Shown: in pieces, positions 2,996 to 57,300 of the stretch
Position numbering within the stretch: the stretch's first letter is position 1
Layout: every line of letters starts with the position of its first letter
DNA from: Antedon mediterranea
Lineage: Eukaryota; Echinodermata; Crinoidea; Comatulida; Antedonidae
Length of the DNA: 64,000 nt
Assembly: GCF_964355755.1 (NCBI RefSeq)
Contig: NC_092677.1
Span: 14,468,601 to 14,532,600, forward strand
Direction of reading: 5' to 3'
Translations under genes and position numbers: made by a program
The notes under the pieces: model-generated
The model's database searches: none
Seen by the model: only the letters and a program-made list of their open reading frames with translations
Told to the model about the DNA's origin: nothing

Positions 2996-3089
<94 letters not shown>

Positions 3090-6000
3090 GATTTATTCGG
3101 ATAAACGCCCAGGGGTGTTCAGGAGGGTTTTTATGGGGCTTTTATTCAAGGGAGGCGTTTAGTTGTTTGGCTGTAATATTATAACATGTATAACCAAATA
3201 AATAGCCTCTAGAAAAATAGTTAGAGAATACAGTAAACTTGTATAAAATGCTTGGTAAATTGTAGATCATGTCAATCAATGAATTCTACTACAAATAGAA
3301 ATGTGTTATAATGCATGCAATATTGTGTGTATAATGTATGTGGCAGGAGGTTTATTCGAGCGAGAATTTATTCCAAATCATGTTCTATGGCCGCGTTTAT
3401 TCGAGTTTGGGGGCGTTTATTCAAAGCTGAGCGTCGATTCGAATAAATACGGTAATATTAAAGAATGGGACTGCGTATTTCCAGTGTACCACTGTTTTCC
3501 TCAGTACCGATATTAATTCATTCAATTTGCATTATATTGCCTGTTGCATCTGAATAAATTATGCATATATAATATTATTGTACAAACATATGGTCGAATT
3601 ATAGTATTAATATACTGTAATGTTGTATGGTTTCCAGGATCTGGTGAAATAATTAAACATAACATTTCTATACATAAATGATTCACCGTACTTTCTAACT
3701 AATAACTAATCGAAATCTACAATTTTGGAAAAACATTTCGTATTTTATAATTTAAAAATCCGAAGTTCACTCATTGCGTTTTACATGTGATACAATGTTA
3801 TATCGTAAACTGTTTATTATTCATTAATGTTTCGTGGCATGACTATTATCTAATTATCTGAAAATCAGGCCAAATTATTTGTCATACAAACCGTAACGCT
3901 AAATATAATGGAATTATAATATTACGCTATATACCTAAATATGTATCTGATTTACATCATAATTATCATTTGAAGGTTGAACTATACGCATCAGAACTCC
4001 TTGGACAAACGAGGAACTCTAAAGAATTGTCTACTATACTCACCCATGATCGTGCAGAGTGGAAGAAAACTCCAGAAGTCATTGAGCTTAAACAACCATT
4101 AAAAGTGTTAAAGGCTGTCACATTTTACCAAAAGAGAGTAAGTATAGAAATCTACTAAAGTAAATACAAATTCAGAATCCAGATAGAGATTAATTATAAA
4201 AAGTACATACTACACTTTATTTCTTAGTGACTTTGCTGAGGAAAAACTGTTCGTGGATACTTTTAGGCCTATAATAAAAAAAACGATTAAGATAAATTAT
4301 TTATGTCCTCAAACTTTCCTTAAATTGAATGATAACCATACTAACAGACGAGAGCTATGGTGGTACACCAAATATTATTTTGAATACAGTTCAAACTTTT
4401 ATTTATTTTTTCTTTTATTTTGTGACTTTAAGTTTGTAGCTCATCCGAACTGTCAGATCCTTTTAACTGATAGGTGGTATAAGGGTCTATCAGCTGATTT
4501 GCGGACCAATCGATCACTAAAGGGACTATTGATGACTTTAACTACTTGTATCTTTTGGCCTATATGGTCAATACTTTATCTGGCCGCACCGATTGGAAGA
4601 ATTTCTACATTCATGCGAACCCCGTAAGTGTAATAAACTATTGTTTCATTCTGAATATAAAGTGTGGGATTAATTGGAAAACTTTTTTTATGGCTGTAAC
4701 TTTTATAAAAACGTATTTACGAATGTCACTATCAATATATCATGTAAATGACATGAACAAATATTGCATTATTTTTTATTCACCGTCTACATCCAATATT
4801 TTTTTAACATAACATTTTTTTAAGTTATCTCTAAATTATAGATTTGAGATACTTTTTATTTTTGGTTAATGACCGTTTAGAAGGTTAACCCTATTACTTT
4901 TCTTAACTGGTTAATTATATCAGTTTTGTATATAACTTATATATCGTATACCTTCAGGAACCGGTTATCAATAATGGTTAGAATTAAACCATCATGTTTC
5001 AAATACTGACTGTGCCGCAATGTAGATTGGTTACAGAAATATATAAACTGTAAACATGTTTAAATATTGAAATACTGCAGATACAGTCCAAACAATTTGT
5101 TATCGGTTCTTTTTATTTTTATAATTAAAGGTATATCAAGTTTCTTATGCACACGTCTTCTTATGTCACATTACTGGTGTTGCTTGGATGCGCAACCAGT
5201 GATGTGCAGATACCGAATAAAGAGGTTTTACGAGAGGAAGAAAATGATACATGTCGGGTATCTGAAGATTTAATACAACAAGAACATGCTCTACGCGTTA
5301 GAGGGCGCAGTCCAACTATTATACAAATATTTATTATGAGTTGGATTCTTGGTAATATTTTAAACTTAATTTTTAATATCTAGAAACCGCGATTTTTAGA
5401 ATTTTTATAATTTAGTACGGCTTCAGCGTTTTAAACGAACAAGAAATACTGAAATTGAAATCAACAGACCAGGCTCTGTTTTTTGCTCGACAACGCTCTA
5501 TCGTTGTTCTGGATGCATCTGCTATCATAATATATATGCCTGACATCATCACATCACATTTCCGACTTATAACCAATATCTATCATAACTTATGATCTTT
5601 GCTTATTCATTGGAGCATAATACAATGTGTTTTGTTAATTAGAAATATCTAGATAAAAAATGCGAAAGTGCAATGAAGTATAATAGGCGTATATTTCTTC
5701 TTTTATTAGGTATGACTTGGCGTGAAGTCAAAGAGTTGTACAGGAATGGAATCAAGGCTTACGTAAAAGATATGTGGAATTTCATCGATTTATTTCAAAT
5801 GATTTTATACTGGTGTTGGATATCTCTCAAGTTTGTGTCTATTAATAAGGTTAGTCCTTGTTTTCCAAGTTTCCTCTTGTTTTGGTTTGTTTTCTTGTCT
5901 TCTTTTCCATTCTTTTCTCTTCTTGTCTTCCTCACTGACACTTTCACATTTCCAATAAATTAAATATGCTGTTATCTTTATATTCTGTATATGCTAGGCT

Positions 6001-9000
6001 AGTGCAGATACAGATGACGTGGACCGCAGTGAGTGGCCTATCTACGACCCAAATCTTGTGGCAGAAGCCATGTTTGCAATGGCAAATATCTTCAGCTTTT
6101 GTCGATCGTTGCGGCTTATTGTTATTAGTGATCAAGTCGGACCGCTGCAAATATCATTAGGAGGAATGGTCGATGATATTACAAGGTAATAAGAATGATG
6201 CGTATTAAAACAACTCGATTTAGGTATTCCTTTCTACTTTCAGCAGTCAGTGTATTTAATAAAAACAAACCTAGATAAGATAATTATAATTTTCATTGTA
6301 GGAAAAATATTTGGAATTTTGCAAGTGTTGTAAATTTTTTTCTACAAATTGAGTGTATTCTTTTTTGCAACAAGAAGACACATTTCATACTGTACTATTT
6401 TGGTTTGTATGACAATATAAGATCTGTATCTGTATCTGTATATTGATGGTGTATATTAATTAATGTAGATATTTTACAGCTGTGTCCATCATGCACCTGC
6501 TAAGTTGCTAAAGAGTTGATGATATAGGCAAAGCGCCTGAATAAATGAACAAGAACGAATTGCCTATCGTGGGAACATCTGACTATTTTGTATATATAGA
6601 TTAGAAACAAACAACCTTCTGATCTGATTAATACACCATGTTTCTTTTAGGTTTTTGTTTATATTTACGTTGGTCTGGGTTGCATTTGCTCTTGGACTTA
6701 CGCAGCTCTATTGGCCATATTCACCAGAGGAGATCATTGAATGTATAGAGGCTGGAGAAACTGAACCAGAGGACTGCAGAGAAATGCCATTTGGCACGTG
6801 AGTTACTATTTTTCTATAGTCATTCCCTTCTACAAAGTTATTCATTACTTGAATTTTAGGTCTTGAAAACGTTAAGGGTACGACGCTTAATGTTATTCTT
6901 TTTTATGAATAGGTCCTGGCCTCTAGAATTGTTATCACTGACAAAATAAAAGAAACATAATGTTCATTGCTTCAATGAAAACTGTACCAACAAAAATTGT
7001 GTCATTTCTAGTAAGATTTAGATTTATCTTTACATTTTAGATTTGGTCACTCTATGGAGACTCTTTTTTGGGCGCTTTTTGGCCTTAAAGACCTTGATGT
7101 ATTGATGAGCAGTTCAACGCATGTCTTCACTGAAGCCGTTGGTCGCTTTATTTTCGCGTCGTATTACGTCATTGGAGTAATTATTTTATTGAATGTTCTC
7201 ATCGCCATGATGAGTAGTACATTTAGTCGAGTTGAGGTTAGTAGAATGTTATTCCTTCTCCTTCCCTTCATTGGTACTGTACCAGTGCTCAAATGATTAT
7301 GGTGATAACATTGTTGGCAGGTGGGCAGTGTCGTTTTAGGTGATGGTAGTAATGATGAAGATGACGAGGAGAATGATGGGTGATAACAAAGAGTGTATGC
7401 TGATGAGAATAATGATGAACATGATGAAGATGATTATCCTAAATGGTCAATAGCAATTATGAAGATAGAAGTGATGGTGAGAAAGTCCATAACGATACAT
7501 TATGTTTACAGAAATACTATTTTGTGCTTACTAGGAAGAAGCAGATATAGAATGGAAGTTCAGTCGTGCTGAGATGTGGATGAGTTACTTTGATGATGCC
7601 GCCACTGTTCCTGTTCCATTTAACCTCGTTCCATCACCAAAGAGTATATGGCACGTGATCAAAGAAATTATGCATTGTTGCTGTTACAAGGATGCGGCTC
7701 AGAAATCTAGAAATGTATGTTTATTTGCATAGATATAACATCTAATTTGAGAATTTGAGGAGCTTTCGATTTCCGACGACTAATGACGTCATCTTAGTTA
7801 ATTGTGCGCATGCGGGAATATTGGGACATGTGTACTTTCGTTTTATTAAGTTTCTTTTTTTGGCTCATTAAAAAAGAAAATTCTATACAATAATAATAAT
7901 TTAAATTGTACTATGCCACACTATGCATAGTATGTTCTTTAAATGTATATAATTCCCTAAATTAATAATTAAACGTTGTTTTGTTTTCAGAAATATGCCC
8001 AAAGAGTAGCAGAAAAAGAGAAGAAATATGATGTAGGTATTATTGATAAAAAAAAATCTTTTCCATTTTGTAGACCGGTACATAATATGTTCGAAACTGA
8101 GTAGGCCTATAAAAATGGTCACTTACAAATTAAAATTTTCGCTACGTTACATTTATGTTATTAGCATGACTACGGTATGCTTTCTCTAAGTTGTCTATGT
8201 GTTTACTCCAATGTTTAACTTCTCTAGCTTGATGACATTTTATTTACACTTTTTTAGGAGGTAGTGCATTTGTTGATCGCGCGTTATATTGCCGAAAAGA
8301 AGTCCGATCAGTATGACACTGAGGGCGCAGTGACGCAGTTGGACATCATTTCGGTTCGTCAAGATATCTCAAGTGTAAAGTAAGTAAAATAATGAATAAA
8401 TTATTATCCTTTCACCTAATATGGTAAATCATATACAAAAATGCCAATGATGCAATAAATATTGAATTTTTGTCACTGTACACAATTTTCACTATTTTAT
8501 TTAAGTATAATATTATACTTAGCCTCACGCAAATAAGCTCTTTGCAATTGCTATTGAGCAAATCAGTGCTTATTCTATTTGTTCTATTGATGAAAAGATG
8601 TATTTATTGATTGAATGGTAAAGAGAGTATTAAACGATTGGAAAACAGTTTATTTAGTTGATAAATCAGCTGATTAATTATCAGAAAATAGGAGAAATGA
8701 GCTTATTGGTACAGATTTGCGTTATACTGTGTAACCAGGATGTACAATAGGGCCTACTGTGAACTTCATCTTTCCGAATTTTCCCCATGAATCAAACCAT
8801 GTATCCAATTGTATAAGTATTCTGGAAAATCTAGTTATTTACATTAGATATACCAAATTTGTAAAGATAGTTCCTAACAACAATACTTGTTTTTATAACT
8901 ACATTAGAAATGAAATCACAGAATTTCTGAGGAAAATGGAAGGAACATTAACCCAGTGTAATGAGAAAATAACAAAGCTTTCAAAACGTGTACACACAAT

Positions 9001-9505
9001 AGAAAAGGTTGTTAAGAATGAGGATCCAGATTCAGAAACAGAGAGTGTCTTGTCAACCATAGATCGAAGACAAAACCGGTTTGCTTCAAAGGGTTTCCTG
9101 TCAGGAGGTGGAATGTTCGGCAGTTTATTTAGCAGCAGTAAAAGCAATTCAGATATAAGACTGCGTGTTCCAAATCCCTCGTACGGCACAGCATCGACAA
9201 TCGCCGCAGATGATGTACTTTCACGCAGTGAAGTTGAGAGCAACGTGGACGATTCGCGCCTAACTGCAGCTACTTCAATTGAGTTGGACTCAACCGATGC
9301 ATCAGACAGCTCGGATGAGGAAGACGGTGGCCTTGATAATGCAGGCTTTGATTTCGATCAACCACCTTACAAAAGAGAAAATGAATTTGGCGAGGAGAAA
9401 TCATCTACGATTGACAGTGAAGCACAGTTAGAGCCTGACCAAAGTCAAAGACCAGAATCGCCCACACTTGTCGGCTCGGTCGTGTCATTTTTCAAAAGAT
9501 TTTAG
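2..9505 (+). CDS. TRPC-type cation channel, 5' partial, 15 exons visible
   Basis: Canonical transient receptor potential (TRPC) subunit, a plasma-membrane cation channel. Exons: 2-125, 566-684, 2351-2458, 2585-2830, 3976-4137, 4433-4623, 5131-5351, 5710-5849, 5998-6185, 6651-6797, 7041-7236, 7535-7714, 7991-8032, 8258-8379, 8908-9505. They sum to 2784 nt (927 codons plus TAG) and every junction keeps phase. The order is ankyrin-like repeats (first three exons), the TRP_2-type linker ending in FVAHPNCQ, and transmembrane segments from exon 6 on. EWPIYDP and [15 protein letters not shown] are typical TRPC motifs. The pore exon reads [13 protein letters not shown]6 is LLNVLIAMM, and a TRP-box-like region has [14 protein letters not shown]. 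The last exon has a short coiled coil, then a long acidic, Ser-rich tail. The start codon and more N-terminus lie before base 1. The family is well supported; orthology to a particular vertebrate TRPC is not settled. Confidence 0.93.
2998..3086. repeat. (TA)n microsatellite
   Basis: About 90 bases of nearly pure TA dinucleotide in the TRPC intron between exons 4 and 5. It abuts an inverted-repeat element at its 3' side. Confidence 0.97.
3087..3452. mobile_element. MITE-like element with TTATTCG inverted ends
   Basis: The left end reads CGGATTTATTCGGAT and the right end is its near reverse complement (ATTCGAATAAATACGG). The interior repeats GTTTATTC-type words with GGCGTTTA, so it is not simple sequence. 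It has no coding capacity and lies inside a TRPC intron. Family assignment is by inspection only. Confidence 0.55.
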
Positions 9506-26561: not shown

Positions 26562-29500
26562 TTATGGGCCTAAGAAAGCGTTTATATGCATTCTGTGACA
26601 GCCATATATTTGTGGAATCGGAGCAAATTCTGCGTCAAGTTGAAACCCGTTAAATCCTGCGGGTATGCATGAGAATTGTTGCCTAGCTCCGACATCGACA
26701 CACCTATAAATCGAAAAATCAATTCATTAACAGTGTACTAAAGCTGTAACAATTTCCAGATCATTATTATCATTATTTTTTTTATTTCAGCAACATTGAT
26801 TTATAACCGAACATAAATAATGATATACATATACATATAATTGAGCATTAGGCATGTGTTTAAATTAACTTAAGCCGTTATACAAAAACATTAATACATA
26901 CCGGAATATATTATATAATATCAAAGAACTTATAACACAAGAATCTCCTGTTCTTCAATTTGCATTCAAAACACAGTATCGGAAGTACAGGGTTAAAAGG
27001 TCAAACTGGGCGACGCCATTTCACAGCATGGAGCAGCGCCCCCCTCCAAACTAGGAAGTCAATTACTCTACCCCCCCTAGAGCATTAGCAGAACCCCTCT
27101 ATGATTTTGACTTTCTAATTTGATGCGGGCGCCCTACTCCTCAGTCAATTACTCTATACCCCCTAGAGCATTAGCAGAACCCCTCTATGATTTTGACTTT
27201 CTAATTTGATGCGGGCGCCCTACTCCATGGCTCACAATGGCGCCACCCATAGCTCTATTCTATCCCACAATGCCTTTCGAAATTGTTACGCGCTTCGGAC
27301 GAACAGGAGATTCTTGTGTTATAAGTTCTTTGATAATATCAATACTTATATATTTATATAAAATCAAATAAATATAAAATTGTAAAGCTCTTTCTACACT
27401 ATCAAACTTCATGTAACAACAAAATACAATCTGCCCATATATGGTGGACATCATATCACTACCATATTTGGGCACATGACACTTGTTTTCGTTAAACTGG
27501 ATAGTTTAGACAGATCAAGCATTATATGAACACATACCGACAATAGTCATCCCGTCCATCGTGGTTTTTATCTCGCATGTACCATGTGTTTGGATACCCA
27601 GGAACAAATACTCCTGCACCTGTCACGTTATAGTTCATCTCTCCCTCAATTGCTGAACCAGCCAATGCGCATGTGAGGAAATATGAGGCTCCATTTCTTA
27701 TGATCCTGAAAATACGAGTGATTTAAATCAATTACAGTGCAGATGGTACGAATGAGCTAGTCAAATGGCCGAATGGTTAAGACAGGGGCGACCACAGTAT
27801 CGGTATGGATTCGAGGCCGACTCTCTCCTAGTGAAACAGGTCTTCTCAGATAAACCTTAGGTCCGGTGTACACATTTTGTCCGTGTGCACTGTAAAGAAC
27901 CCAGTTCATTATTCGAGACGAGAATAGTACAGACAAAGCTTTAGAGAGATAATAAATATAAATATAATTCACCTGCAGAAATCATTGGCTACTCCCTGGT
28001 CTTGTACGTCAACAAATCCGCTAAACATGGATGGAACTCCTTTGTGTTTAATTCCATATTGTCGAGGCTGAATCTTCGTCCCAAACCTGGGACTGTTTAC
28101 TACGAAAAAATATAAATCAAAACAAATTGAATAACATTAAACTGCACCATCAACATTTAAAATATTTGTATATTCAAAGAATATACATCCGAAGAATAAG
28201 GCAATTCGGATTTTCTGTAGCAATAATAATTTCATGGAGAAGAGCTCAGCATACGTCTGGGTGTATCTGAACCTGTAATGTTGAATTCGAGACTTTCACT
28301 CTCTATTTCCTCCTGAAAACGTGACCGATATTTGTACTGTTTGGGCTAGGGTGCTTCTAAATCTTCGATATTGTGCATTATATATTAGAACCACGAACAT
28401 GTGTTTTACACCAATTTCTACACAATTACACGTCACAAAGTCGCATTGAGGGAAAATACACATGTCTTTTCGTAGGACGGTATCAGCTTTGCTATTTACC
28501 TTGTGGAAGATCCTTAACTGCAATCGATCTGGTTTCAATTGGTCCGTAACCAAGATAGTTCACAGCTCTTATGGTGAATATATAAATGCCTGGTCTTAGA
28601 ACTCCACTGTTGTATTCTGTTCGGGTAACAGATACAACTTCTTTGTGCATTAACCCTGTTTCTGGCCTAGACATTGTTATCTCGTAATGTCGCACCTCAG
28701 TTCTTGTGTGGAAAGGTCCGGTCCAAGTAAGTTTGACTCGATTTCTTTGTACCTGTCCTATCATGAGACTTTTAATTGCCTGAGGTGGTCTTGTCTCTAA
28801 AGAAAAAACACATCCGGTTTTATTTATTTGTGTCTATTAGTTAAATGAATTTTACTATTAACATATTCTAGGTTTTAAAAAAATGGTATGATTTAGCAAC
28901 TTTGGATATGTTTGATTATTGGCATAGTAAAATACTTTTCGTGAATAGTTAGCACAGTATTATCTAATATGATTAATTAAGTTTGTAATTAAACAATGCG
29001 ACAATTATTATCTTTTACCTGCTAAACAGTCATGGTTAGACTTTCCTAAGCCTGGTAGTGGAGTACATGCCAGCTCTTTTGGCCAATCTACTCTAGACTT
29101 GAGCATAGCAACAGCGCATGTTTTCTGAACATCACGGCATGTTTCTCGACATGGAATAAACGATGCACCACCATCACATGCGGGAATGTAGGCTGAGCAA
29201 AGGAAATTTTGAAGTCGATGAGAGCACCCAGAGTCGATCAATTCCCTCCATCTCTCCAATTCACGCGCAGCTTCCTCCTGTGTCTGGTGGCCGAACATAT
29301 TCGGAAAGGAGGTCATGGAGAAGCCTACTTCTTGACATATTGGAACTCGTACTTGTTCACAGAAATCACTGTGTCCTAAAATGAAAAGAAAATGAAGATG
29401 TGGTAATTATTAAAACAAAACTTGAAAAATAAATTCAAAACAAAAGGAAATTGCAGTTATTTCAACGTTGTAAATTATTGATGTATGAAATGCTATTTAC

Positions 29501-32500
29501 AAACAGAGAGAGAGGAAGTTGTGGTAGAATCTAGTCATATAAGTTTGGGTATGTCCCACATTAAGTAGGTAAGTATAATGATGATTATGATATGGTGCTC
29601 CTATCCACAAAAGAAAAAAAAACACTGCTGCTATGTTCCTATTACTTACTACTTCCTGGACGTATACTATGGATAAGATTACGACGATTTAGTGCTTGTA
29701 TTGGTCTGAAGTTGTCAACAATTGATTCAACAGAAGTTCCTTTTATTGCTTTCAACATTCTGAATCGTGACATCTACAAAAGAATACAAAAATTTAAAAA
29801 TTAAACTTCAAACTTCCATCACTTCGGCTTATATATGTAGACAAATCTTCAATGTGTCTCATTTACCATTCGGCACGTCGTTTCGTTAGTTTGTCGCTTG
29901 TTATGAAGCGGCAATACCACGTTGACTACGGACATACCACGTTGACTACGGCCATCATAGCACATTGAAACACCGGTTCTCGGCAGATTACCGAAGTTAG
30001 CTAACGTTGGGTTTGATTGCGTTCTTGGATAAGAGAACGTCGGAGAATATCGGATGCTGTATAAGACCAGAGAGTGATGGTGTAATGATAAGGAATTGGA
30101 CTAGCATGTGATAGGCATAAGGAATGATGCATAGGATGCTGATCTGCATAGAATACAACTATTATACATGACTGTATTCATTATGTTTCTTTTTAAAACT
30201 TTTTAAAAATTACCGTTGCTGGAGAAACACAAATTGGCCTTTTGAAAACAGTCCACACAACACTTTCCCAGCATCCGGGTGTTGTTAGAGAACCATTATA
30301 ACGATAGTAATCATCCATCTTAGCACCTTTGATAAGATCTCCAAGTTTGATGAGTTGGGTCATTGTAACAGGAGTGTCAGCTAAAAAAAAATATTTAGGT
30401 CTTCTTTGTAATTCTTCCATATCCATAAAGAATAAAAGATAAAGATAAAATATACAGATTGAAACAAGCTCTCTTATTATGTAATAAACTGTTTCCAAAC
30501 AACTTAATTCCTAACTGTTCAAGTGTTAGAAAATAGTACATAAAGAGGTTCTTTGTGATTATAATTACTTATCATTACTTTGTCCACAATAATGTGTTTT
30601 TGATAAAGATTGTGTATAAGATTATCAAACATACATTGTCTTTCGATACTTGGTATATCAACGCCAAATTTTTCAAAAGCTGCATTTGTTGGTACGCATA
30701 CCTGCAATGTAAATTATAGTTATTTTTTATATGCATTAATGGTAATTATTACTATAATATTCTTGATTTGTTTAAGCAAGGCAATCTAATAACAGAACGC
30801 TAAACTCGCCCTGCCAAGATAGGAACTCGTTACCAGTCCTTTGATCATGTCTGACTGCGAGAAATACCAACAGTACTGTACTATGTACGGTGTCCAACCA
30901 TTTTGGGAAACCAATAGGTCAATCGGAACTCAATTAAAAAGGTGGGGCGACGTGGAATTGATTGTGTCGCAGCCACAGATAAACCCTTTGATCGGAGCAC
31001 AGCATCATTTGGTTAGATGTTGTGTTGATGTTTAACCATGTATACAGACCAGAAACTGTGTGCATCACTTACATCAATGAAAAATCCGAGTACAGCCAGT
31101 CCTCTTGGTGACTTGATTGCTGTGGCTACATCCGGGTAGGTTGTGTTATCCCAGTGCACAATATGCAACTGAAAGAATGAAATATATATTTAAAAACAAC
31201 CTGAACTAAACATTTTTTTAATGATTAGGTTAATTGTTTCAACATTTTAATTTATCTTACTTAGTAACACTAATAATACCAATTGTTATAAGATAATTGA
31301 TTTTTTTTTATAGTATTTAGTTATTTAAATATTTTAAACATAACAATATTTTATATTTTATACATTATCATAAGAATTCGCGCATTCAATGATATTTTTG
31401 TATATTTTCTATCAACTTTTTTTTTTTCATTTTGGGGGTTTTTTTCCCATGAAAACTTGGTTTATCTGTTTGGTCGGTTCTTAATTGTTTGTGTTGAACA
31501 AATAAATAATTGAAACAAACAAATTAATAAATGGAATTATTTTTAGAGGACATATTTAATTTCATACTTGTGTTTGTTTATGTACGTTTCTTTCTCATTT
31601 TAGTTTCTTTTTTTTGGTATTAATAGTAGTAGTTTTGACTTTTTGACTTGGTCTCAGTGGTCATGAGTTTTGTAATTAATTTGTTATTTAAAATACGGAA
31701 ATAGGCTGCATTAGGTTAATTAAGATAATTGGTAACGAAACACGTACCACTCTGTATCCGTAGCTTGTCATTGAAACACAGTTATAATGTTATAAATAGA
31801 TAATTCGAACAATACAGAACAGTATAAAAGTGGTATGTAAATTGATAAAATTCATTTCTTACTAACATACAGATGCTAGTTATTTAATTTATTTTTGCTT
31901 AAGAACATCAAAGTAAACCGACAAAATGAACATAATTACTAATTTTATTATAAAATAACATATTCCATATACATTAATATTATTATGGTGAATTTAAAAC
32001 TTTGTAATAACAAAGTTATAAGAATACACAGAATATGGGAAGTTCAAAGTTCATGGAATTAAAAAAAAAGTACATTTATTTCACAGTTTGTGTCCATTAA
32101 AGGAACTGGTTAGGCCTATGAATACAATTAGGATATTAGTAAAACTTTATATCAAATGATCTCTTTAATTAGTTTTAATTAATTTAAAGATGTATGGGTA
32201 TGTGTTTGTTTCTTACCTCAGCAGGATAAAATTTAGCGTTGAGGGCGTGTTCTGATCCACGATTATTTTTAGCTCCCCAATGCAAATGAAATTGTAGTGC
32301 TTTGTAAGTACCACCGAGACTGCCACCAGATACAGAATAGTCTTTTAGTAGATCGACAGAGGCTGAGATCAAATGAGAAAACAAACATTTTTAATTACTT
32401 CAATCTATCTGCATTATACATTTAAAAGTTAACTTTGTACTTTAAAATTTGAATTGACTGCTATACCAAACATTGAGTTATCTATTTTTCAATTTTAAAC

Positions 32501-35282
32501 TTACAGGAAATTTTTTTCATAATAATTAGTGCCTTGTATAAGAAAAAAAAATTATATTATGTTTAACATACCTGTATGTCCATTGTTTCTTAGTTTCATA
32601 ATACCTGGCGCTGGGGCATCAAAGTAACCTCCCAACTGGAAGCTGCCCAGGTCAGTTTCCTCTGCTATTGTGTCATCTAGATTTATTGGTGATTGATTCA
32701 GACCACCGCATTGACTATATGTTGTTTTCCAGAAAGAAGGTCCTAAAAATAATATAAATTGTATAAATATTTATATCTAAAAATATTTCATCTCTATTGC
32801 AAATAACTTCATATTCGATTTAAATTATTCATATACTTGTATTTCGTTTAAAATATTCTAAAATAGACATTTTGAAGTGATCTCATTCTATATATTAAAT
32901 TTATTAAACATAGATCATATGCAACAATCTACATAGTTGTGCAGCAAAATAGTAAAAAAAAAATATTTATCGCGAAAATATATTGTAAAACAAGAATTTA
33001 GTGCTATTTACTGTACAATTACTGCTTACTGTAGGTTAAATATATGTTTTACCTTTGTTGTCCGGTCCATAGGTCCAAGTAGCTGCCCCTAAAAAAGTAT
33101 TTTAAAAGAATAATGGTTTTAGATACTATATTTAAGAACTGAATATTCAACAAGATAATTGAATTGTGAGTTGTTGACGAAACTATTTCAAATATTTTTT
33201 TTTTTGTAATATGTAAAGTAGGCCTATTCATACTATATTTCTTAATGACCCAAAATCTTCAAATGTTTATTACTTGATATAGTTTATAGAAATACAGAAA
33301 AATAGCATTTACTACAGTAGGTCTAAAAGTGAAGAAGCATGAGATTCATTTTTGTGATACAAAAGTGAAGTGGAATATAGAATTATTTGAGCTGGCACAA
33401 TTAACTTTAGCTCAATTATGCAACTAATCACTAGGTCAAATGTCATTTATTTTTAGGTCCCCTATCACGTGATTTGTTCGTGTTTTATTAAAGTCTGGGT
33501 TAAGATCCCTTTCTGTCGTATATAAAGGAAATGGAAACGACGTGTGTATGACTAAAATGACACGGACAGATTTTCCCCTGCTGATCGTTCAAAGTTTCTG
33601 TTGGCTTTTTGACATCCTTTATTAACTTCGCCAGAATGACACATCGGTCATAAACTCAGCACATAATCAAACATATCCTTAACACGTGTATTACCGGCAA
33701 AAAATCTAAAAGATTTTTGCAAATTGAAAATAACTTATTTATTCAAATTAAAACGTAAACAGTTTATTTAATGATAATCGGATCTGAATTAAATGATTAC
33801 TGTACATTACTTTAAACTAAACAAGTACCACCACAATACAATTCATATCTATACTTTTATCAAAATTGCTATTCTACAAGAATAGTGAAAGTATACAGGA
33901 TTGTTTGTTTTTTGTGTTATTTTTTGGTAAAACTTTAAAAACATAATTAGTAGGCCCTATTGTTATATTTCTTTATTCTAAATTTTTCGTTAAAATCAGT
34001 GAAGAGTGAACTTCCCTGGTTGACACTGCAGTAAAAATAATTGAATTTGATTTAGTAAATGCAAGTAAACAGAGTTAAATTTTTAAGAACTATTACTTTA
34101 TTCTGGTATTTAAAAAAAAAATTAATAATTAATCACCATTTCCCTATACATGTGTCATCACATAATGTCGTTACGAATGTTTCTACTTTCGTTAAAAAAT
34201 AAACCATATCACTGAGATTAGCAAGTGAAAATAAATGCTTTTTGTTGATAAGTTAAAAGTATAATTGATTCATTTGAGTAATAAGAATGTTTTTAGTTTT
34301 CGTAATTTTTATTGATGATTAAAAAAGGAATCGGTCGGGGGTACTTGTAAGGATATTTTTGGCTAAAAACTGATACAACTAACATTAACAACATCAATAA
34401 AAACATAATTAACTATTTTGTCGCCAGACTGTTATTTGTCTCAATTCTTTGGGTTAAATGATTACTCATTTAGTAATAACTAAAAGTGTATATATATTCA
34501 AAGAATATATTAGACGAAAGCGTCATATTTCTAATGTAACACATTTTAATGTTCAACTAAAAGAAAGAGGAAATGAAGAAGGCTACCTAAATCACCCTTC
34601 CATTACAATAAACCTCTGAGCATACTATTCTTTTTTTTCTACGTGAAAAAGATACACTAATAGCCAATAAAATATACAAAATTAAACATCCTTTTTTTTT
34701 AAATTTGTTGTTTGTATGATCACCTTTTTCCAAATCACACATTAGGCTTGTTATCATTAAGTTCATGATGTTAAATATTATATATAATTCAAGTAATCAA
34801 CGAATTTTGTTTAGAATTAAAATAATAATTACACGTTTTAATAATGTGCTGCATATACAATTTACAACATAATTCTAAACTATTAATATAAATATCTTAT
34901 ATACTGTACAATGAATGCCTTTTTATTAACAAAATTAATCATTTCAAAACATAATTACATTATAATCGAGTAGTGAACTTGATAATACCTAAACTATAAT
35001 CGTTTTTTTTTATATCCTTTTGACAAAAACTTCTACATAATTTTACTATTTGAATACTTGCATGCGAGCATAATGTTACAGTATAGGCCTATTTCAATGT
35101 TGGTCTCTTGTAGAAAACCAAGAAACGTCAAAACATGCCATTATACATAACACAGCAAATTGATGAATGATATTCCAATTCCATAACAGTCAAAATGATT
35201 TTATATTAAAATAATGATATAAACTAAACTTACCAGTTGTGATTGCACAAGTATATAAAGTAGCAAGAATCAACGAGTACAT
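26562..35282 (-). CDS. Secreted carbonic anhydrase-Frizzled CRD-fibronectin III fusion protein
   Basis: Thirteen exons on the minus strand: 35282-35234, 33088-33053, 32742-32572, 32362-32217, 31168-31073, 30701-30569, 30380-30214, 29773-29650, 29375-29019, 28796-28500, 28099-27973, 27705-27538, 26703-26562. They total 2013 nt: 670 residues plus TAA, all phases consistent. Residues 1-16 are a signal peptide. Residues 18-307 are an alpha-carbonic anhydrase (CO2 hydration) with the shuttle-position His in NNGHT, zinc ligands in FHLHWG and LHIVHW, the gatekeeper Glu in GSEH, and Thr in SLTTPGCW. Residues 308-426 are a Frizzled-type Cys-rich domain ([22 protein letters not shown]). Residues 427-525 are fibronectin III, bounded by phase-1 introns. 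Residues 525-670 carry [18 protein letters not shown] (a DxNxDGxxD-like loop) and a final Cys-rich stretch. It is probably extracellular. Exon 6 uses the second of two donors, chosen by phase. Biological role unknown; an ionic or biomineral function is only a guess. Confidence 0.88.
26917..27339. mobile_element. Terminal-inverted-repeat element with internal tandem duplication
   Basis: The left end ATCAAAGAACTTATAACACA continues through AGAATCTCCTGTTC; the right end (27300-27334) is its exact reverse complement over at least 33 bases. Imperfect inverted similarity continues inwards (GGCGACGCCATTTCACAGC versus GGCGCC...CATTGTGAGCC). The centre has an 86-base unit repeated twice in tandem (from 27057 and 27143). 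It lies in the last intron of the carbonic anhydrase fusion gene and has no coding capacity. Confidence 0.85.
27383..27521. mobile_element. TA-flanked MITE, copy 1 (degenerate)
   Basis: Starts TAAAGCTCTTTCTACACTAT and ends in a decayed version of the inverted end (GTTTAGACAGATCAAGC). Inside are the family words CCATATATGG and CATATCACTACCATATTTG. It begins 17 bases inside the intron from the donor of exon 12 of the carbonic anhydrase fusion gene. Confidence 0.85.
27757..27960 (+). mobile_element. tRNA-derived SINE
   Basis: The head contains an A-box-like TGGCCGAATGG and, about 35 bases later, a B-box-like GGATTCGAGGCC, the internal RNA polymerase III promoter of a tRNA. The body includes GTGCACTGTAAAGAACCC and it ends in an AT tail (ATAAATATAAATATAA). 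It fills most of the intron between exons 11 and 12 of the carbonic anhydrase fusion gene, in the opposite orientation. The acceptor-stem pairing of a functional tRNA is not present. Confidence 0.75.
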
Positions 35283-47191: not shown

Positions 47192-47388
47192 CAGGGGACT
47201 CTAGTCCGGTCAAACTGCGGTTCGTTCAAATTTAATTTACCGCAGTCATATTTTAGACAGCGCCCTAAATATTTCGTTGCCGTGCGAAACAGATTTTTAC
47301 TGGCTTACGAATACGTGTGCGTTACGTATCAGTTTTCGTTATCGTAATAACATTTCCATTTTTTTATAAGGTTGACAGGGAACATAGC

Positions 47389-48795
47389 ATGAAGAAAAAG
47401 AAATTTACAATAATCCTTGCATTTGCCATTATTACTCTATACTTTGTTATCTTCCCGGATAATAATGTAACATTTAAAGAATTCCTGCCATCTATCAGTC
47501 AACAAACAGAGGACGAAAGCGAAATATACGATGTTATACGCAAACAATACACTATTGATCAAAGTGTTCAAAATGGATCTATCTGTTGTGGTGAATTTAT
47601 AATCGACGAATCTAAATACACGACTTCTTATCCACCAGACGGATCGTGTTATTTCAAAGATAGTTTAAGAAAGTCTGGGCTACCAGATCTACATTCAGCT
47701 TTTGTTGATACAATTGGAGATTATGTAGTTTTTATTGGATTACAGTTTTCAACAAACAAGTGGAGTTCTCGAACGTTTTTCTGCGAATTTCCAGATGGTG
47801 AAAGAACTATTAACAATCCTATCTTAGAGGATAAATTAAGCTTTGGATGGCTTCCACAATATATAATTGTAATAACTTGTGAATTACCCAAAAAATATAA
47901 AACAAGACTCAATTTTCAGATGAATTTTAGAATTTTGCCAAGTGCAAAAACTAATATAAATAATGTAGAAAGTGGTAGTGAAGACACAGTCGCCTACGAC
48001 AATTTGACGGTTTGTCAAACAGGTTCGAAGCAAAGACACTTCTTATCAATGTGTACAATGGTTAGGGATGTAGATGAATTTATCCCTTCATGGTTACAAT
48101 ACCACAAGTATATGGGAGTAGAGCATGTTTACATATATGACAATGCCGTAAACGAAAGTAACAGCAGTTCTCTGATCACATCGTTGAGGGAGTTTATAAA
48201 TTCAGGATTTGTGACTGTGGTTCCATGGGGGCATACCAAATCACCTTCAAAGACGTATCTGGAAATACAGATTGCTCATGAAAACGACTGTTTGTGGCGT
48301 CATCGACATGATTCCCTATGGATGATTAAAACTGACGTTGATGAATATATCCAACCAATGGATTCGAAAAGACCTAAAATCACCGACTATCTAAAAGATC
48401 CGAAGCTGTATACATTAGGAGGAATAAGGATTCAAAATTGGTTTTTCGGTCGACCTCTAAATTCAACTACCCGCAATGGTACTATAATAGAGAGGAATAT
48501 TTGGAGATCAAAATTGCCTACCATCCTAAATACAGGTCATGATAAAAATATTTTAAGACCAATGAATGTTCACTATTTTAAAATACACGCTATTAAATTA
48601 GGAAGTGGGCATAAAACATTAGATCCTGTGAGTGAGCTGAGAATGGTGCATTACCGTGGAGATAATCCAAGGCATCGCAGCTTTAAACTGCCACCATTCG
48701 ATGTTAAAGATACTACTATGGTAGAGATATGGAAAGCAGTGCTAAAAGATAAAGAAGGTTTGACCATTCCTATGCCTTTAGACAACGAAATATAA
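47389..48795 (+). CDS. GT92 family glycosyltransferase, intronless
   Basis: A single-exon 468-residue type II membrane protein. The frame is open further upstream, but the first ATG in frame is at 47389. KKKKF followed by about 17 hydrophobic residues forms a signal anchor, placing the enzyme in the Golgi lumen. The C-terminal half is a glycosyltransferase family 92 (DUF23) domain: CTMVRDVDEFIPSW from about residue 220, VEHVYIYDN, HENDCLWRH, then DVDEYIQPM near residue 315 as the metal-binding DxD motif, and WFFGRP and HYFKIHAIKL later. Family members such as nematode GALT-1 add beta-galactose to glycan cores; the acceptor here is unknown. The TAA stop is formed at the edge of a MITE (48794 onward). 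A broken paralogue lies 3 kb downstream in the same orientation, so this is a tandem duplication. Confidence 0.92.
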   Translation: MKKKKFTIILAFAIITLYFVIFPDNNVTFKEFLPSISQQTEDESEIYDVIRKQYTIDQSVQNGSICCGEFIIDESKYTTSYPPDGSCYFKDSLRKSGLPDLHSAFVDTIGDYVVFIGLQFSTNKWSSRTFFCEFPDGERTINNPILEDKLSFGWLPQYIIVITCELPKKYKTRLNFQMNFRILPSAKTNINNVESGSEDTVAYDNLTVCQTGSKQRHFLSMCTMVRDVDEFIPSWLQYHKYMGVEHVYIYDNAVNESNSSSLITSLREFINSGFVTVVPWGHTKSPSKTYLEIQIAHENDCLWRHRHDSLWMIKTDVDEYIQPMDSKRPKITDYLKDPKLYTLGGIRIQNWFFGRPLNSTTRNGTIIERNIWRSKLPTILNTGHDKNILRPMNVHYFKIHAIKLGSGHKTLDPVSELRMVHYRGDNPRHRSFKLPPFDVKDTTMVEIWKAVLKDKEGLTIPMPLDNEI

Positions 48796-51749: not shown

Positions 51750-52886
51750 CAAGAAAAAGATGTGTCTAGAACAAGGGTCATCAAACGCATTCCTGAATTC
51801 ATTTCTGTGTTAGATATAAGGAAAAACGGGTCAGCATATGTTTATTCATCACCACGAAACTCAATGTGTTTCTTCAATCCACTCAATATTTTCAGATCAC
51901 GTGGCAGGAAGCGTCGTCATGGTCGGTGTGAAATTTCAAAAAGACACCTGGCATGAAGATATTTTTAATTGTAAATTTGACAACGGTGATGTTACAGTTT
52001 CAGATCCAATCGTGAACAATTTTAAAAGTTTTGGTTTTCTACCACAATACGTAGTGGTTATTACATGCCCTCTACCAGAACAATACAGTCATAAAAATGG
52101 TTTTACTATGTCATTAGAACGGCTTGTACCTTTTCCAATAGAACACAAATACTCTTACGATAACTTTACTGTCTGCTCTGCCGACGGTTTCCCGCCAAAA
52201 TCAAACTTTTTAGCAGTGTGTACAATGGTTAAAGACGTGGACGATTTCATTCCTTCTTGGATTGAATATCATCATTTTATGCGTGTAGAACATTTCTATA
52301 TATATGATAATCAAATTGAAATTGATAGTACATTAAAAGAGACAGTCGGTATGTTTATTAAAAAAGGTATTGTAACAATCATTCCATGGGCACATAGACA
52401 TTCACATTCTAAGACATATTTAGAAGTACAAATTGCTCACGAGAACGACTGTGTGTGGCGACATAAACACGGCACAAAATGGATGATCAACATTGATGTC
52501 GATGAATATATACAGCCCCTGGATCCATCTAGACCGAACATTCCTGATTATTTTTTGACAAAAGCTTCGAGAAACTAGGATCTATCCGCGTGCAGAATTG
52601 GTTTTTTGGTAGACCAACCAACGTGACGGCAAAAGGTACCATAATTGAGCGAAATACTTGGCGCCCTTCGAATCCTTCGGAACTGAATGCAGGTCACGAT
52701 AAGAACATTCTTCAGCTAATTAACGTACATTATTTTAAGATTCGTGCTATAAAACTAGGAGGAGAAACGCGTTCTGTAGACCCTTGGACAGATCTTAGGC
52801 TTGTTCATTACTTCCGAAGTTCAATGTTAAAGATGCGAGCATGGTGAACATTTGGAAAAAGATTCAGCATAAAAAACAAAAGTGAG
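51750..52886 (+). pseudogene. GT92 glycosyltransferase pseudogene
   Basis: A second GT92 copy with the same motifs as the intact gene: FLPQYVVVITC, CTMVKDVDDFIPSW, HENDCVWRH, DVDEYIQPLDPSRP, WFFGRPTN, HYFKIRAIKLGG. The reading frame breaks at three places. Near 51890 a frame carrying NGSAYVYSS passes to the one carrying the main domain. Near 52570 a stop follows TKASRN and the frame resumes with LGSIRVQNW. Near 52812 about 40 bases are missing after LVHY and the frame resumes as KFNVKDASMVNIWKK up to a TGA at 52886. No start codon with a signal anchor is visible. The first break falls at an AG that looks like a splice acceptor, but the intact neighbour has no intron there, so decay is the simpler reading. 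Confidence 0.85.
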
Positions 52887-54344: not shown

Positions 54345-57300
54345 CTAATTAATCATAGAAAATCGTTGAATCTTTGCAGGTTTGGGTTTAGTTTTTGGGG
54401 GTGGGGGTGGAGGCGTCTTGTTTGACTCGCAGTTTACGTTAGGACTAAATTGTAGAGGTTTGTGTTGCTCCCTTTCTTCCAAAGATGGACGTGGTACCTC
54501 ACTTTTTGGTCTTGGTTTAGGTTTTGTCCCTGGAGGTTTTTTAGGAACACTGGGTGGTTGTTTATTAACAGGCTGCTGGATGGGAGACTTTTTAGCTACA
54601 ACGGGAGGCTTTTTAGCCACACTGGGAGGATGTTTGGGTAAAGTAGGAGGTGGTTTAAGTACAAAGAGAGTCTGGTTAGGTACAATAGGAGGCTGGTTAG
54701 GTACAAAATGAGACTGCTTAGGCACAATAGGAGGTGGTTTAAGTAGGCCTACAAAGGGAGGCTGGTTAGGTACAATATGAGGCTGGTTAGGTACAGTAGG
54801 AATTTGTTTAAGTAAATTACGAGGTTTGTTTGGTGCAAATTCAGGAATAGTAGGTGGTTGTTTTGATCGAGCCTGATTGCTTGTTACATTTAATATCGAT
54901 AAATCGTTGATTTGTTTCGCTTGCACTGGCGATGCATTTTGTTGCATTTCTGACTTCTCTGACAAGTTTAATGGAGTCCTACCGATGGCAACGTCATTAA
55001 ATGTTCTGGAAGATGGCCTTAAGTTTTCTTTTAATTGTTTTATTAAATCACTAGAAATGCCGACTGCTACTGGTCCTTGAGATTGTGTTGGAGTATTCGA
55101 TTGTTCATGTACTTTTTGAGTCACATGTTGTTCTTTTGGAGACTTTAATCGATTTTCATTTATAACACATTGTAGAAGTTTTTGTGTTATTGGCGGTGGA
55201 TTTGGAATATTACAATGATCAATTTCGTCTGTGTTGCCTGGTAAAGGAATCTCCAATTTAGGGGGTAACGGAGGCGGAGGTTGAGCACTATCTACTACGC
55301 CGTAATTTAAGTCCATCTGTATTTTATCAGTGACATAACATGAATCATTTGCATCATCAAGAGGAGGAGCATCTACTCCGTTATAATTTAAGTCATCAAT
55401 TACATAAATTGAATTTGTGGCATCATCAAGTTCATTCAAGGCTTCTTCTATTCTTTGTTCCAATGCTGGTTCCTCGTATATCCGTTCGTCTTTATCTATT
55501 ATACGACTAATAGAATGTCCTAATTGCCTTTCTGGCAATGCTGGTGGTGTATAGTCCCTTTTCTGTTGTTGTGTTTGTTGATTTTCAAATGTAGCATATT
55601 CGTCTGTGTTATTTTTCAAAAACATAAAATAGTTACCTGCTGCTCCCCTTGGTGTTGGGGTTTGAGCGATACTTGAACTATCAGACATTTTTCTTAAGCG
55701 TAACGACGGTGTATTAGGAACATTTTCCCATTCAGGCCTTCGATTTAAAGATGAGAAGGGATTATATGAAAATGATTTGGAGCCATTAACTGGATTCAAC
55801 TCCTCGTAATACTGGTTTTCACTGTCTGCGTCATCAGTTGTTGAAGAATAGTCCGATGATGTGGTTCTTGTGATGTAATCGTAACTCGTTCCATCATCAG
55901 GTTCAATAGGGATTTCTCTTGGAGACTCCCATGCGGGTTCTGGAACAGCCTTACGTGGTGTTCTGTCTTTAACACGTACAGTATTAGATTCTAGTGGGCT
56001 TTTCGGTTCCTTAATGTCAGCAATCAATGGTTGTGTAAATATCATACCATGACCAACCTTGTCTAGTGCTCCGTAGTCTATTGCCGTCGAAATGTACCGA
56101 CGTTTCTTGTGGTGGGCACGAACATGTCGTTTTGTTTTTCGCCTAATTTCTTTCGTGAATTTTCGAGAAGCAAATTTCGAAATCCGTTTCATATCCCGTT
56201 TTGAATCGAATGCTTTTCCTTTCTGTAATAAAATAAACAATGTGTAAATAGGAAGAATGGAGAATACGAATTGTAACCGTATAATCCAGTTACAACACTA
56301 ACATTGTATAGCAAAAGTATTCCATGTTTGCTATTCCATAACTTACGTTATGACTGATTTCTGCTTTTAGATTGTTTATTTCCTCCGAAGAGGATGGGCC
56401 GATCCTGGAGGTACTGCAATACCAGGCCAACCCGTGGCCAGGATGGAGCAAGCTCCTATTCCATGGCCTAGGTTAAAAAATCAGTTTAATATAGAAGCTA
56501 CTCGATGAGCAGCGTTTCAGATATTAAGCTGAAAAGAACAGATACTACACATGATCTTAGCCAAAAGGCCGAGAAGCGATGCCGAAATTTTAAATTGCAT
56601 AATATAAGAATGACAAACAAATTGTGGATCTATAAATGTCAAAATGCTAAACTGGTCTGTGTCCACCTATATATTGCTAACCGAAAATAGTGTATATTTA
56701 TTTAAAGGCATTTTGATTATATTTTGTTCAATGTGAATTGTTATCATATAAAATGTAATATAAGGTGATATGGACAGGACAGTTTTTATTTTATCTTATC
56801 AATATTCATTAGTTCGTGTAGCGCCCTCTTAGAATGTGCAAAATATGAAATATAAGTGTGAAAATGATAAAATTTAAAATGTAAATTATGTATTTAAATT
56901 ATGTTCAACCAACAAAAGTTTGTATTTGTATCGTTTAAAAGTTATTGGATTTCAATTACATTGTGTTAAAATATGTTTTATATCACATTTTTAAAATGTA
57001 CGGTATAAATGATCAGCTTTGTTTTATTTTGCTTTATCAATATTCATTAGATTGAGTTGCGCCCTCTACTGTATAACGTGCAAAATACGAAATGCAGTAG
57101 CTGGTCTATCATGAAGAAGAATCAAGTTGATCTGATCTGAATTGATGATACTGTACATAGTTCTTGCTTTTTATTAATTTCCCACAAATTAACTGAGAAT
57201 TTGGCTGATATTATTTACTTTTTAACAGGTTTCCACGAACACGAACTATATTTGATTTTCTGACGTCAATAATACAAAAATATATATCTGAATACTTACC

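What the first reader, a model, noticed from the sequence alone, without database searches (positions are those of the whole stretch)
26562..35282. Alpha-carbonic anhydrase fused to a Frizzled cysteine-rich domain, fibronectin III and a novel C-terminal module
Thirteen exons join in frame to a 670-residue secreted protein. A carbonic anhydrase with visible zinc-ligand, shuttle and gatekeeper motifs is followed directly by a Frizzled-type Cys-rich domain, then fibronectin III, then a Cys-containing region with [13 protein letters not shown]. The CA-CRD junction is not an assembly of neighbours by guesswork: exon 8 ends at a strong GTAAGT donor leaving one base, and exon 9 begins with the two bases needed. 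I know of no named family with this order. It could tie extracellular bicarbonate/pH chemistry to a ligand-binding (Wnt, lipid or matrix) module, for example in a skeletal matrix.
Basis: partly seen in the sequence, partly recalled or inferred. Interest (0 to 1): 0.82.

Follow-up and report, generated by a model that had tools for sequence, protein, structure and literature searches.

The report
Carbonic anhydrase with Frizzled-type domain
An echinoderm gene appears to encode a secreted enzyme that interconverts carbon dioxide and bicarbonate, joined to a Frizzled-type binding domain and a small recurring tail module, which could fix the enzyme at a chosen place outside the cell; no transcript has been examined.

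Summary
Thirteen minus-strand exons (35282 to 26562) join at GT-AG sites in phase into a 648-residue (not 670) protein with a signal-like start. Pfam finds carbonic anhydrase (E 2.8e-73), Frizzled CRD (2e-27) and fibronectin III (3.9e-6), and nothing in the last 145 residues. Zinc ligands, proton shuttle, gatekeeper pair and an extracellular-type cysteine pair are kept, so the enzyme should be active. Among 34 Fz and 34 CA hits in the animal's own genome, only here do the two lie together. The tail is not unique: the same three-exon module, in the same splice phases, lies downstream of Fz at two other loci, and a more distant copy at a fourth. It holds two FG-GAP-like "DYCR" repeats related to bacterial ones. 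The genome is an echinoderm's (bindin), perhaps a crinoid's. No transcript or second species could be examined, and the exon 8 donor is the weakest of twelve: the CA-Fz join is likely but unproven. Best reading: a matrix- or ligand-targeted extracellular carbonic anhydrase, a new combination of known domains plus an unnamed module.

The parts
35234..35282 (-). Exon 1: start codon and signal-like peptide [17 protein letters not shown]
   Evidence: hydrophobic N-terminus; no signal-peptide program was run
33053..33088 (-). Exon 2: start of the CA domain ([12 protein letters not shown])
   Evidence: alignment to CA2 and CA14
32572..32742 (-). Exon 3: CA, includes Cys40 and proton shuttle His84
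   Evidence: PF00194 hit
32217..32362 (-). Exon 4: CA, zinc ligands His111 and His113, gatekeeper Glu123
   Evidence: PF00194 hit
31073..31168 (-). Exon 5: CA, third zinc ligand His136
   Evidence: PF00194 hit
30635..30701 (-). Exon 6: CA
30214..30380 (-). Exon 7: CA, SLTTPGC motif with Thr221/Thr222 and Cys225
   Evidence: PF00194 hit
29650..29773 (-). Exon 8: C-terminal end of the CA domain; donor GTAAGT; a stop codon follows in frame inside intron 8
29019..29375 (-). Exon 9: whole Frizzled-type cysteine-rich domain, ten cysteines, phase 1-1
   Evidence: Pfam Fz E 5.9e-29 alone; closest solved structures by sequence Frizzled-10 and Frizzled-4; cysteines
28500..28796 (-). Exon 10: whole fibronectin type III domain, phase 1-1
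   Evidence: Pfam fn3 E 1e-7 alone
27973..28099 (-). Exon 11: C-terminal module, first part (ends ..GVANDFCR)
27538..27705 (-). Exon 12: C-terminal module, end of repeat 1 and start of repeat 2 (..[14 protein letters not shown])
26562..26703 (-). Exon 13: C-terminal module, rest of repeat 2 and C-terminus (..NAFLGP), stop
   Evidence: AATAAA 211 nt downstream of the stop

Best explanation
One gene encodes a secreted, enzymatically competent alpha-carbonic anhydrase carrying, on its C-terminal side, a Frizzled-type CRD, one FN3 domain and a two-repeat FG-GAP-like (DYCR) module. The enzyme converts CO2 to bicarbonate and a proton outside the cell; the three C-terminal domains hold it at a place: the CRD by a lipid-bearing or matrix ligand (Wnt-type palmitoleate or another), FN3 and the DYCR module by adhesion, the latter possibly with calcium. 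It arose by exon shuffling, an extracellular-type CA gene being joined to a pre-existing Fz + DYCR secreted scaffold. Shown here: exon structure that fits, domain identity, catalytic residues, recurrence of the module. Inferred: single transcript, secretion, activity, ligand, origin, place (skeletal matrix is a plausible but untested site).
For: In-phase GT-AG joins across 13 exons. Pfam hits for three domains in one order. Catalytic residues and the Cys40/Cys225 pair kept, 103 of 248 aligned residues identical to a CA2 chain. Fz and FN3 are single exons with phase 1 at both ends, the usual mark of shuffled modules (recalled). The same C-terminal module lies downstream of Fz at two other loci of this genome, so exons 9-13 look like a known scaffold with CA added in front. 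Intron 8 is 274 nt, with none of six poly(A) hexamers and no ATG in frame with exon 9 after the last stop. The exon 9 acceptor is the best of the gene. Nearest CA paralogues are a tandem pair at C8:27.82-27.83 Mb, 60-62% identical in exon 4; the frame of one of them ends in a hydrophobic tail after the CA domain, so the source looks like an extracellular CA.
Against: No transcript seen. The exon 8 donor is the weakest of the gene's 12, and an in-frame stop lies just inside intron 8, so a CA-only product is possible. A separate first exon for the Fz part outside intron 8 is not excluded. No second species could be searched. Secretion, Wnt binding, matrix binding and calcium binding are untested; repeat 1 of the module has lost the acidic loop ([10 protein letters not shown]). 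Single-sequence fold of the Fz exon was of low confidence (pLDDT 47.9).
Confidence: 0.68

Rival explanations
1. Two neighbouring genes: a stand-alone secreted CA (exons 1-8, ending at the stop in intron 8) and a separate Fz-FN3-DYCR gene whose first exon was missed.
For: Reading through the exon 8 donor gives ..IRPGSSK-stop, a normal length for a stand-alone CA (recalled); frames at the ends of two other CA genes, at C8:17.94 and C8:27.82 Mb, stop at about the same place. The exon 8 donor is the weakest in the gene. Intron 7 holds ATG-led open stretches that were not tested as first exons.
Against: Intron 8 is 274 nt with none of six poly(A) hexamers tried and no ATG in frame with exon 9 after the last stop, and exon 9 has the best acceptor of the gene. 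A stop right after a GTAAGT donor in this phase is expected often by chance (my estimate, about one in five; not computed), so it is weak evidence.
Confidence: 0.15
2. One gene, two products: retention of intron 8 gives soluble CA, splicing gives the CA-Fz-FN3-DYCR form; regulation shifts the enzyme between free and tethered states.
For: Weak donor with a stop within a few codons of it.
Against: None of six poly(A) hexamers in intron 8, so the short form would carry its stop far upstream of later junctions and may be degraded; no transcript data.
Confidence: 0.12
3. The CA part is a passenger and the protein acts mainly as a secreted Wnt antagonist of the sFRP kind.
For: CRD closest, among solved structures, to Frizzled-10 and Frizzled-4 CRDs, E about 1e-23; ten cysteines.
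Against: The catalytic residues of CA that were compared are kept, apart from Asn67 -> Ser, which a passenger would be expected to lose; no netrin-like (NTR) domain was reported by Pfam, which sFRPs have (recalled).
Confidence: 0.1

Closest known systems
Extracellular alpha-carbonic anhydrases (CA IV, VI, IX, XII, XIV type; class features recalled)
   Same: Catalytic domain (CA14 and CA2 chains are the best solved matches), active-site residues, Cys pair, signal-like start
   Different: Those have no Fz or FG-GAP-like module (recalled); here no membrane anchor is evident from hydropathy
Receptor protein tyrosine phosphatases gamma and zeta (CA then FN3; recalled)
   Same: CA and FN3 in one extracellular chain
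   Different: Fz lies between, CA keeps its zinc ligands, no phosphatase part was reported by Pfam
Secreted Frizzled-related proteins and other soluble Fz-CRD proteins (carboxypeptidase Z, collagen XVIII; recalled)
   Same: Soluble ten-Cys CRD; carboxypeptidase Z likewise joins a zinc enzyme to a CRD
   Different: Enzyme is an alpha-CA; no NTR domain reported; CA precedes the CRD
Nacrein and other CA-bearing matrix proteins (recalled; nacrein named in passages of PMC8933548)
   Same: CA fused to extra extracellular sequence, possible use in a calcium carbonate matrix
   Different: Nacrein's extra part is a low-complexity repeat (recalled), not folded Fz/FN3/DYCR domains
Bacterial FG-GAP_3/VCBS-type tandem repeats with DYCR motif (L056, L057)
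   Same: DxNxDGxxDYCR then ..LxCAL.. repeat, two per animal module
   Different: Animal module has only two repeats, six invariant cysteines in three copies, a similar C-terminal tail, and is split over three exons; Pfam does not recognise it

Membership tests
Alpha-carbonic anhydrase (PF00194) | Profile score over cut-off across the whole domain | tested here: met
   247.1 bits, cut-off 27, profile 2-253 of 254
Alpha-carbonic anhydrase (PF00194) | Three zinc histidines, Glu106-Thr199 pair, proton shuttle His64 | tested here: met
   His111, 113, 136; Glu123, Thr221; His84
Alpha-carbonic anhydrase (PF00194) | CO2 hydration activity | not testable with these tools
   needs expressed protein
Frizzled cysteine-rich domain (PF01392) | Profile score and ten cysteines | tested here: met
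   101.3 bits alone, cut-off 32.1; ten Cys at 291-402
Frizzled cysteine-rich domain (PF01392) | Binding of Wnt or another lipid-bearing ligand | not testable with these tools
   fold of the exon alone was of low confidence; no groove analysis made
Fibronectin type III (PF00041) | Profile score over cut-off | tested here: met
   27.4 bits in the protein, 32.5 alone, cut-off 25
Secreted Frizzled-related protein | CRD followed by netrin-like domain (recalled) | tested here: not met
   no netrin-like family among the Pfam hits at E up to 1
RPTP gamma/zeta | CA + FN3 + transmembrane + phosphatase domains (recalled) | tested here: not met
   no phosphatase hit; the most hydrophobic 19-residue stretch after residue 30 is in the CA core
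FG-GAP / VCBS-type repeat | Pfam profile over cut-off | tested here: not met
   0 of 3 animal modules hit anything in Pfam at E up to 10
FG-GAP / VCBS-type repeat | Match to the bacterial DYCR repeats, which score as FG-GAP_3 | tested here: met
   profile of eight bacterial repeats: window module 46.4 bits, paralogues 67.2 and 51.2; best stretch among 900 shuffles 6.8 bits. The long bacterial array is FG-GAP_3 at E 1.3e-14, the short L057 stretch (14.5 bits) is below its cut-off of 26.9. Bacterial loci were found with repeat 2 as query, so only repeat 1 is independent: 33.6 and 30.1 bits in the paralogues, 16.4 in the window
FG-GAP / VCBS-type repeat | Acidic calcium loop DxDxDG | tested here: inconclusive
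   kept in repeat 2 (DKNHDGRDD), lost in repeat 1 ([10 protein letters not shown]) of the window; the C10 copy keeps both (DVDGDGVAN and DMNGDGLDD); calcium binding not testable

The most novel reading that the evidence does not exclude
A ligand-guided carbonic anhydrase conserved in echinoderms, whose Frizzled CRD brings CO2/bicarbonate/proton chemistry to Wnt- or lipid-bearing cell surfaces or to the mineral front, so that local pH and Wnt-type signalling or skeleton deposition are tied in one secreted molecule; its tail belongs to an unnamed animal module derived from bacterial-type FG-GAP repeats.
Probability: 0.2. Interest if true: 0.82.

Novelty: new variant of a known kind. Interest (0 to 1): 0.52.

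Why it matters
Carbonic anhydrases take part in calcium carbonate deposition, and those that work outside the cell are often held in place by membrane or GPI anchors (recalled). A CA with a built-in Frizzled CRD and adhesive modules would be another way of placing the enzyme, and a direct molecular test case for links between extracellular pH chemistry and Wnt-type ligands or skeleton. The tail module, read at four loci of this genome and not recognised by Pfam or NCBIfam, may deserve a family of its own.

Tried and rejected
Possible extra exon at 28330-28240 between FN3 and the module: by reading, its frame does not fit, left out. PDB by sequence for the module, single and as a three-row profile: only chance-level matches. 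NCBIfam and Pfam with three modules: none. Full-module scan of prokaryote genomes: 37 pattern matches, none confirmed; repeat 2 alone gave two confirmed loci of 338 pattern matches. COX1 in the own genome, to read the mitochondrial code: no match. First attempt to read other CA gene ends used the wrong strand, repeated on both strands. Two Fz exons (C7:25214346 and C7:24475416) were cut at the wrong place in my script, so 31 of 33 other Fz hits were compared. Structure predictions without alignment: Fz exon mean pLDDT 47.9, bacterial repeat stretch 31.5; both too poor to use, no fold search made. Copies of the intron 12 element in the own genome: not answered.

Full report
What is there. The gene lies on the minus strand from 35282 to 26562. 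I rebuilt it from the raw strand and joined 13 exons, all with GT-AG introns and fitting phases; the coding sequence is 1947 nt and the protein 648 residues. Against Pfam the protein shows Carb_anhydrase (residues 29-280, E 2.8e-73), Fz (291-393, E 2e-27) and fn3 (414-491, E 3.9e-6, 27.4 bits against a cut-off of 25), in that order, one sub-threshold Ig-like overlap on the FN3 part (E 0.14), and nothing at E up to 1 over its last 145 residues. The N-terminus is hydrophobic and signal-like; the most hydrophobic 19-residue stretch is inside the CA core. No signal-peptide program was run.

The enzyme part. The best solved relatives are a carbonic anhydrase 2 and a carbonic anhydrase 14 chain (E 1.8e-47 and 1.2e-46). 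On the printed alignment, the three zinc histidines, the proton shuttle His64, Gln92, Glu106 and Thr199/200 of CA2 fall on identical residues (Asn67 falls on Ser), and Cys40 and Cys225 stand where extracellular CAs have their disulphide (roles and the disulphide position are recalled). 103 of 248 aligned residues are identical. I conclude, by inference, that it is an active extracellular enzyme.

The Frizzled part. Exon 9 alone is the whole CRD (E 5.9e-29 on its own), with ten cysteines. Among solved structures it is nearest to Frizzled-10 and Frizzled-4 CRDs (E 2.2e-23, 3.6e-23). Within the genome, the best-scoring other CRD exons are only 36-38% identical (31 of 33 other hits compared, two cut wrongly). 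Exons 9 and 10 both begin and end in phase 1.

Is the join real? For: phases; none of six poly(A) hexamers in the 274-nt intron 8, no ATG in frame with exon 9 after the last stop in it, an AATAAA 211 nt after the final stop; exon 9 acceptor the best of 12 in a leave-one-out matrix of the gene's sites. Against: exon 8 donor the lowest of 12, with 42 of 495 GT sites of the gene scoring higher, and a stop codon in frame shortly behind it. A first exon for a separate Fz gene elsewhere, such as in intron 7, was not excluded. The frames at the ends of CA genes at C8:17.94 and C8:27.82 Mb stop at about the same place, while those at C8:27.828 and C1:34.40 Mb run on into hydrophobic tails, so the stop could be a relic of an ancestral CA end; but a stop after GTAAGT in this phase should be common by chance (estimate, not computed). 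I put the fused transcript at about 0.8. No transcript was available.

The tail module. A search of the own genome with the 145-residue tail found the three window exons and five further matches. At C8:15065413-15064406 the module follows a run of 11 Fz hits in about 6 kb; at C7:21005399-21006502 it follows, on the same strand, Fz (about 20 kb upstream), Kunitz, three Ig-type and one Sushi exon (six of seven exon frames tested had a Pfam hit; that they belong to one gene is inferred). At both places the module is split into three exons with the same phases as in the window (read), and identity to the window module is 48 and 43% with six invariant cysteines. A fourth copy at C10:18962750-18963850 follows EGF-like and CUB-like stretches (read by eye) and a Pro/Thr-rich stretch; its E-value in the searches was weak (0.08 and 0.06) but all three exon parts can be read. 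Two further weak hits are at C10:18975966 and C1:23230203 (E 0.04 and 0.3) and were not followed. So Fz plus this module is a recurring pair, and the window gene adds CA in front and FN3 between.

What the module is. It holds two repeats of the form D-x-x-x-x-G-x-x-x-D-[YF]-C-R .. L-x-C-A (by eye). Scanning the prokaryote species collection with repeat 2 gave two loci: a Nitrospinaceae protein with six DYCR/DFCR repeats and a small Solirubrobacteraceae protein. The long array scores as FG-GAP_3 (E 1.3e-14); the short one stays below cut-off. A profile of eight bacterial repeats scores 46.4, 67.2 and 51.2 bits on the three animal modules; the best stretch among 900 shuffles has 6.8 bits. Since repeat 2 was the query that found the bacterial loci, repeat 1 is the independent part: 33.6 and 30.1 bits in the two paralogues, 16.4 in the window. 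The module is therefore most likely a two-repeat FG-GAP-like unit; Pfam and NCBIfam do not recognise it. Direction and date of any transfer are not known, and the fold could not be modelled (pLDDT 31.5 on the bacterial stretch).

How unusual. PF00194 hits in the own genome (34 at E up to 10) fall into about eight gene places and PF01392 hits number 34 (E up to 0.001); only in the window do the two lie together (counts are lower bounds by the tool's own words). Ten full-text searches were made, eight of them on CA with Frizzled, Fz or multidomain terms. None of the listings shows a title or abstract about a CA-Fz protein, but one search listed 20 of 193 papers and 15 of 36. I saw only matching passages of PMC7853314, PMC5460417, PMC8382897, PMC8194122, PMC8933548, PMC13144384, PMC6368272 and (for species) PMC12828049; the other listed papers were not opened. 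The red coral skeletome lists separate Frizzled-domain proteins and CruCA4, and frizzled domains appear among shell-damage contigs in bivalves, so both parts have been met near biominerals, but in these passages not in one chain. Subscription literature and eukaryote sequence collections were out of reach, so absence is not shown.

Which animal. Bindin (PF02084) is found at E 2.3e-28, a protein I know only from echinoderms; eleven large contigs of 22-41 Mb and seven small ones suggest eleven chromosomes, which from recall fits crinoids. No call names the species.

Mechanism. Most likely a tethered extracellular CA: hydration of CO2 beside a matrix or membrane ligand held by the CRD, FN3 and DYCR module. 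Skeletal use is plausible in an echinoderm (CA is reported from the sea star skeletal proteome, passages of PMC5460417) but untested.

Noticed in passing
G000:C8:15064406-15071998 (-), locus L047: Run of 11 Fz-domain hits followed by the same DYCR module, about 0.56 Mb from the CA-Fz gene on the same chromosome; one Fz hit (15067875-15068192) carries an in-frame TGA.
   Followed up: partly
G000:C7:20985091-21006502 (+), loci L050-L052: Probable large secreted protein: Fz, Kunitz, three Ig-type exons, Sushi, ending in the DYCR module (one gene is inferred).
   Followed up: partly
G000:C10:18959025-18963850 (+), locus L053: EGF-like, CUB-like (by eye) and Pro/Thr-rich stretches followed by a fourth DYCR module copy in which both repeats keep the acidic loop.
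   Followed up: partly
L056 and L057 (bacterial contigs): Nitrospinaceae protein with six DYCR/DFCR FG-GAP-like repeats and a small Solirubrobacteraceae protein with two or three: possible prokaryote relatives of the animal module.
   Followed up: partly
window 26915-27339: Element in intron 12 with 42-nt terminal inverted repeats (95% complementary) around a tandem pair of 84-nt units: looks like a miniature transposable element; copies elsewhere could not be searched.
   Followed up: partly
window 47269-48792 and 51820-52844 (+): Two glycosyltransferase family 92 open frames; the second matches only the first half of the family profile and seems to go on in another frame, so broken or with a missed intron.
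   Followed up: no
window 56389-56580 (-): Full-length U2 spliceosomal RNA match (Rfam, 190 bits).
   Followed up: no
window about 2500-9500 (+): Exons of an ion channel, perhaps of TRP type (Ion_trans hit at 7015-7293; the TRP name and the extent are by eye).
   Followed up: no
window 54348-56297 (-): 650-aa open frame, proline-rich towards its C-terminus, with a weak Abi_HHR match below that family's cut-off.
   Followed up: no
G000:C8:27822001-27830000 (-): Tandem pair of CA genes, the nearest CA paralogues; the frame of one ends in a hydrophobic tail suggestive of a GPI anchor.
   Followed up: partly
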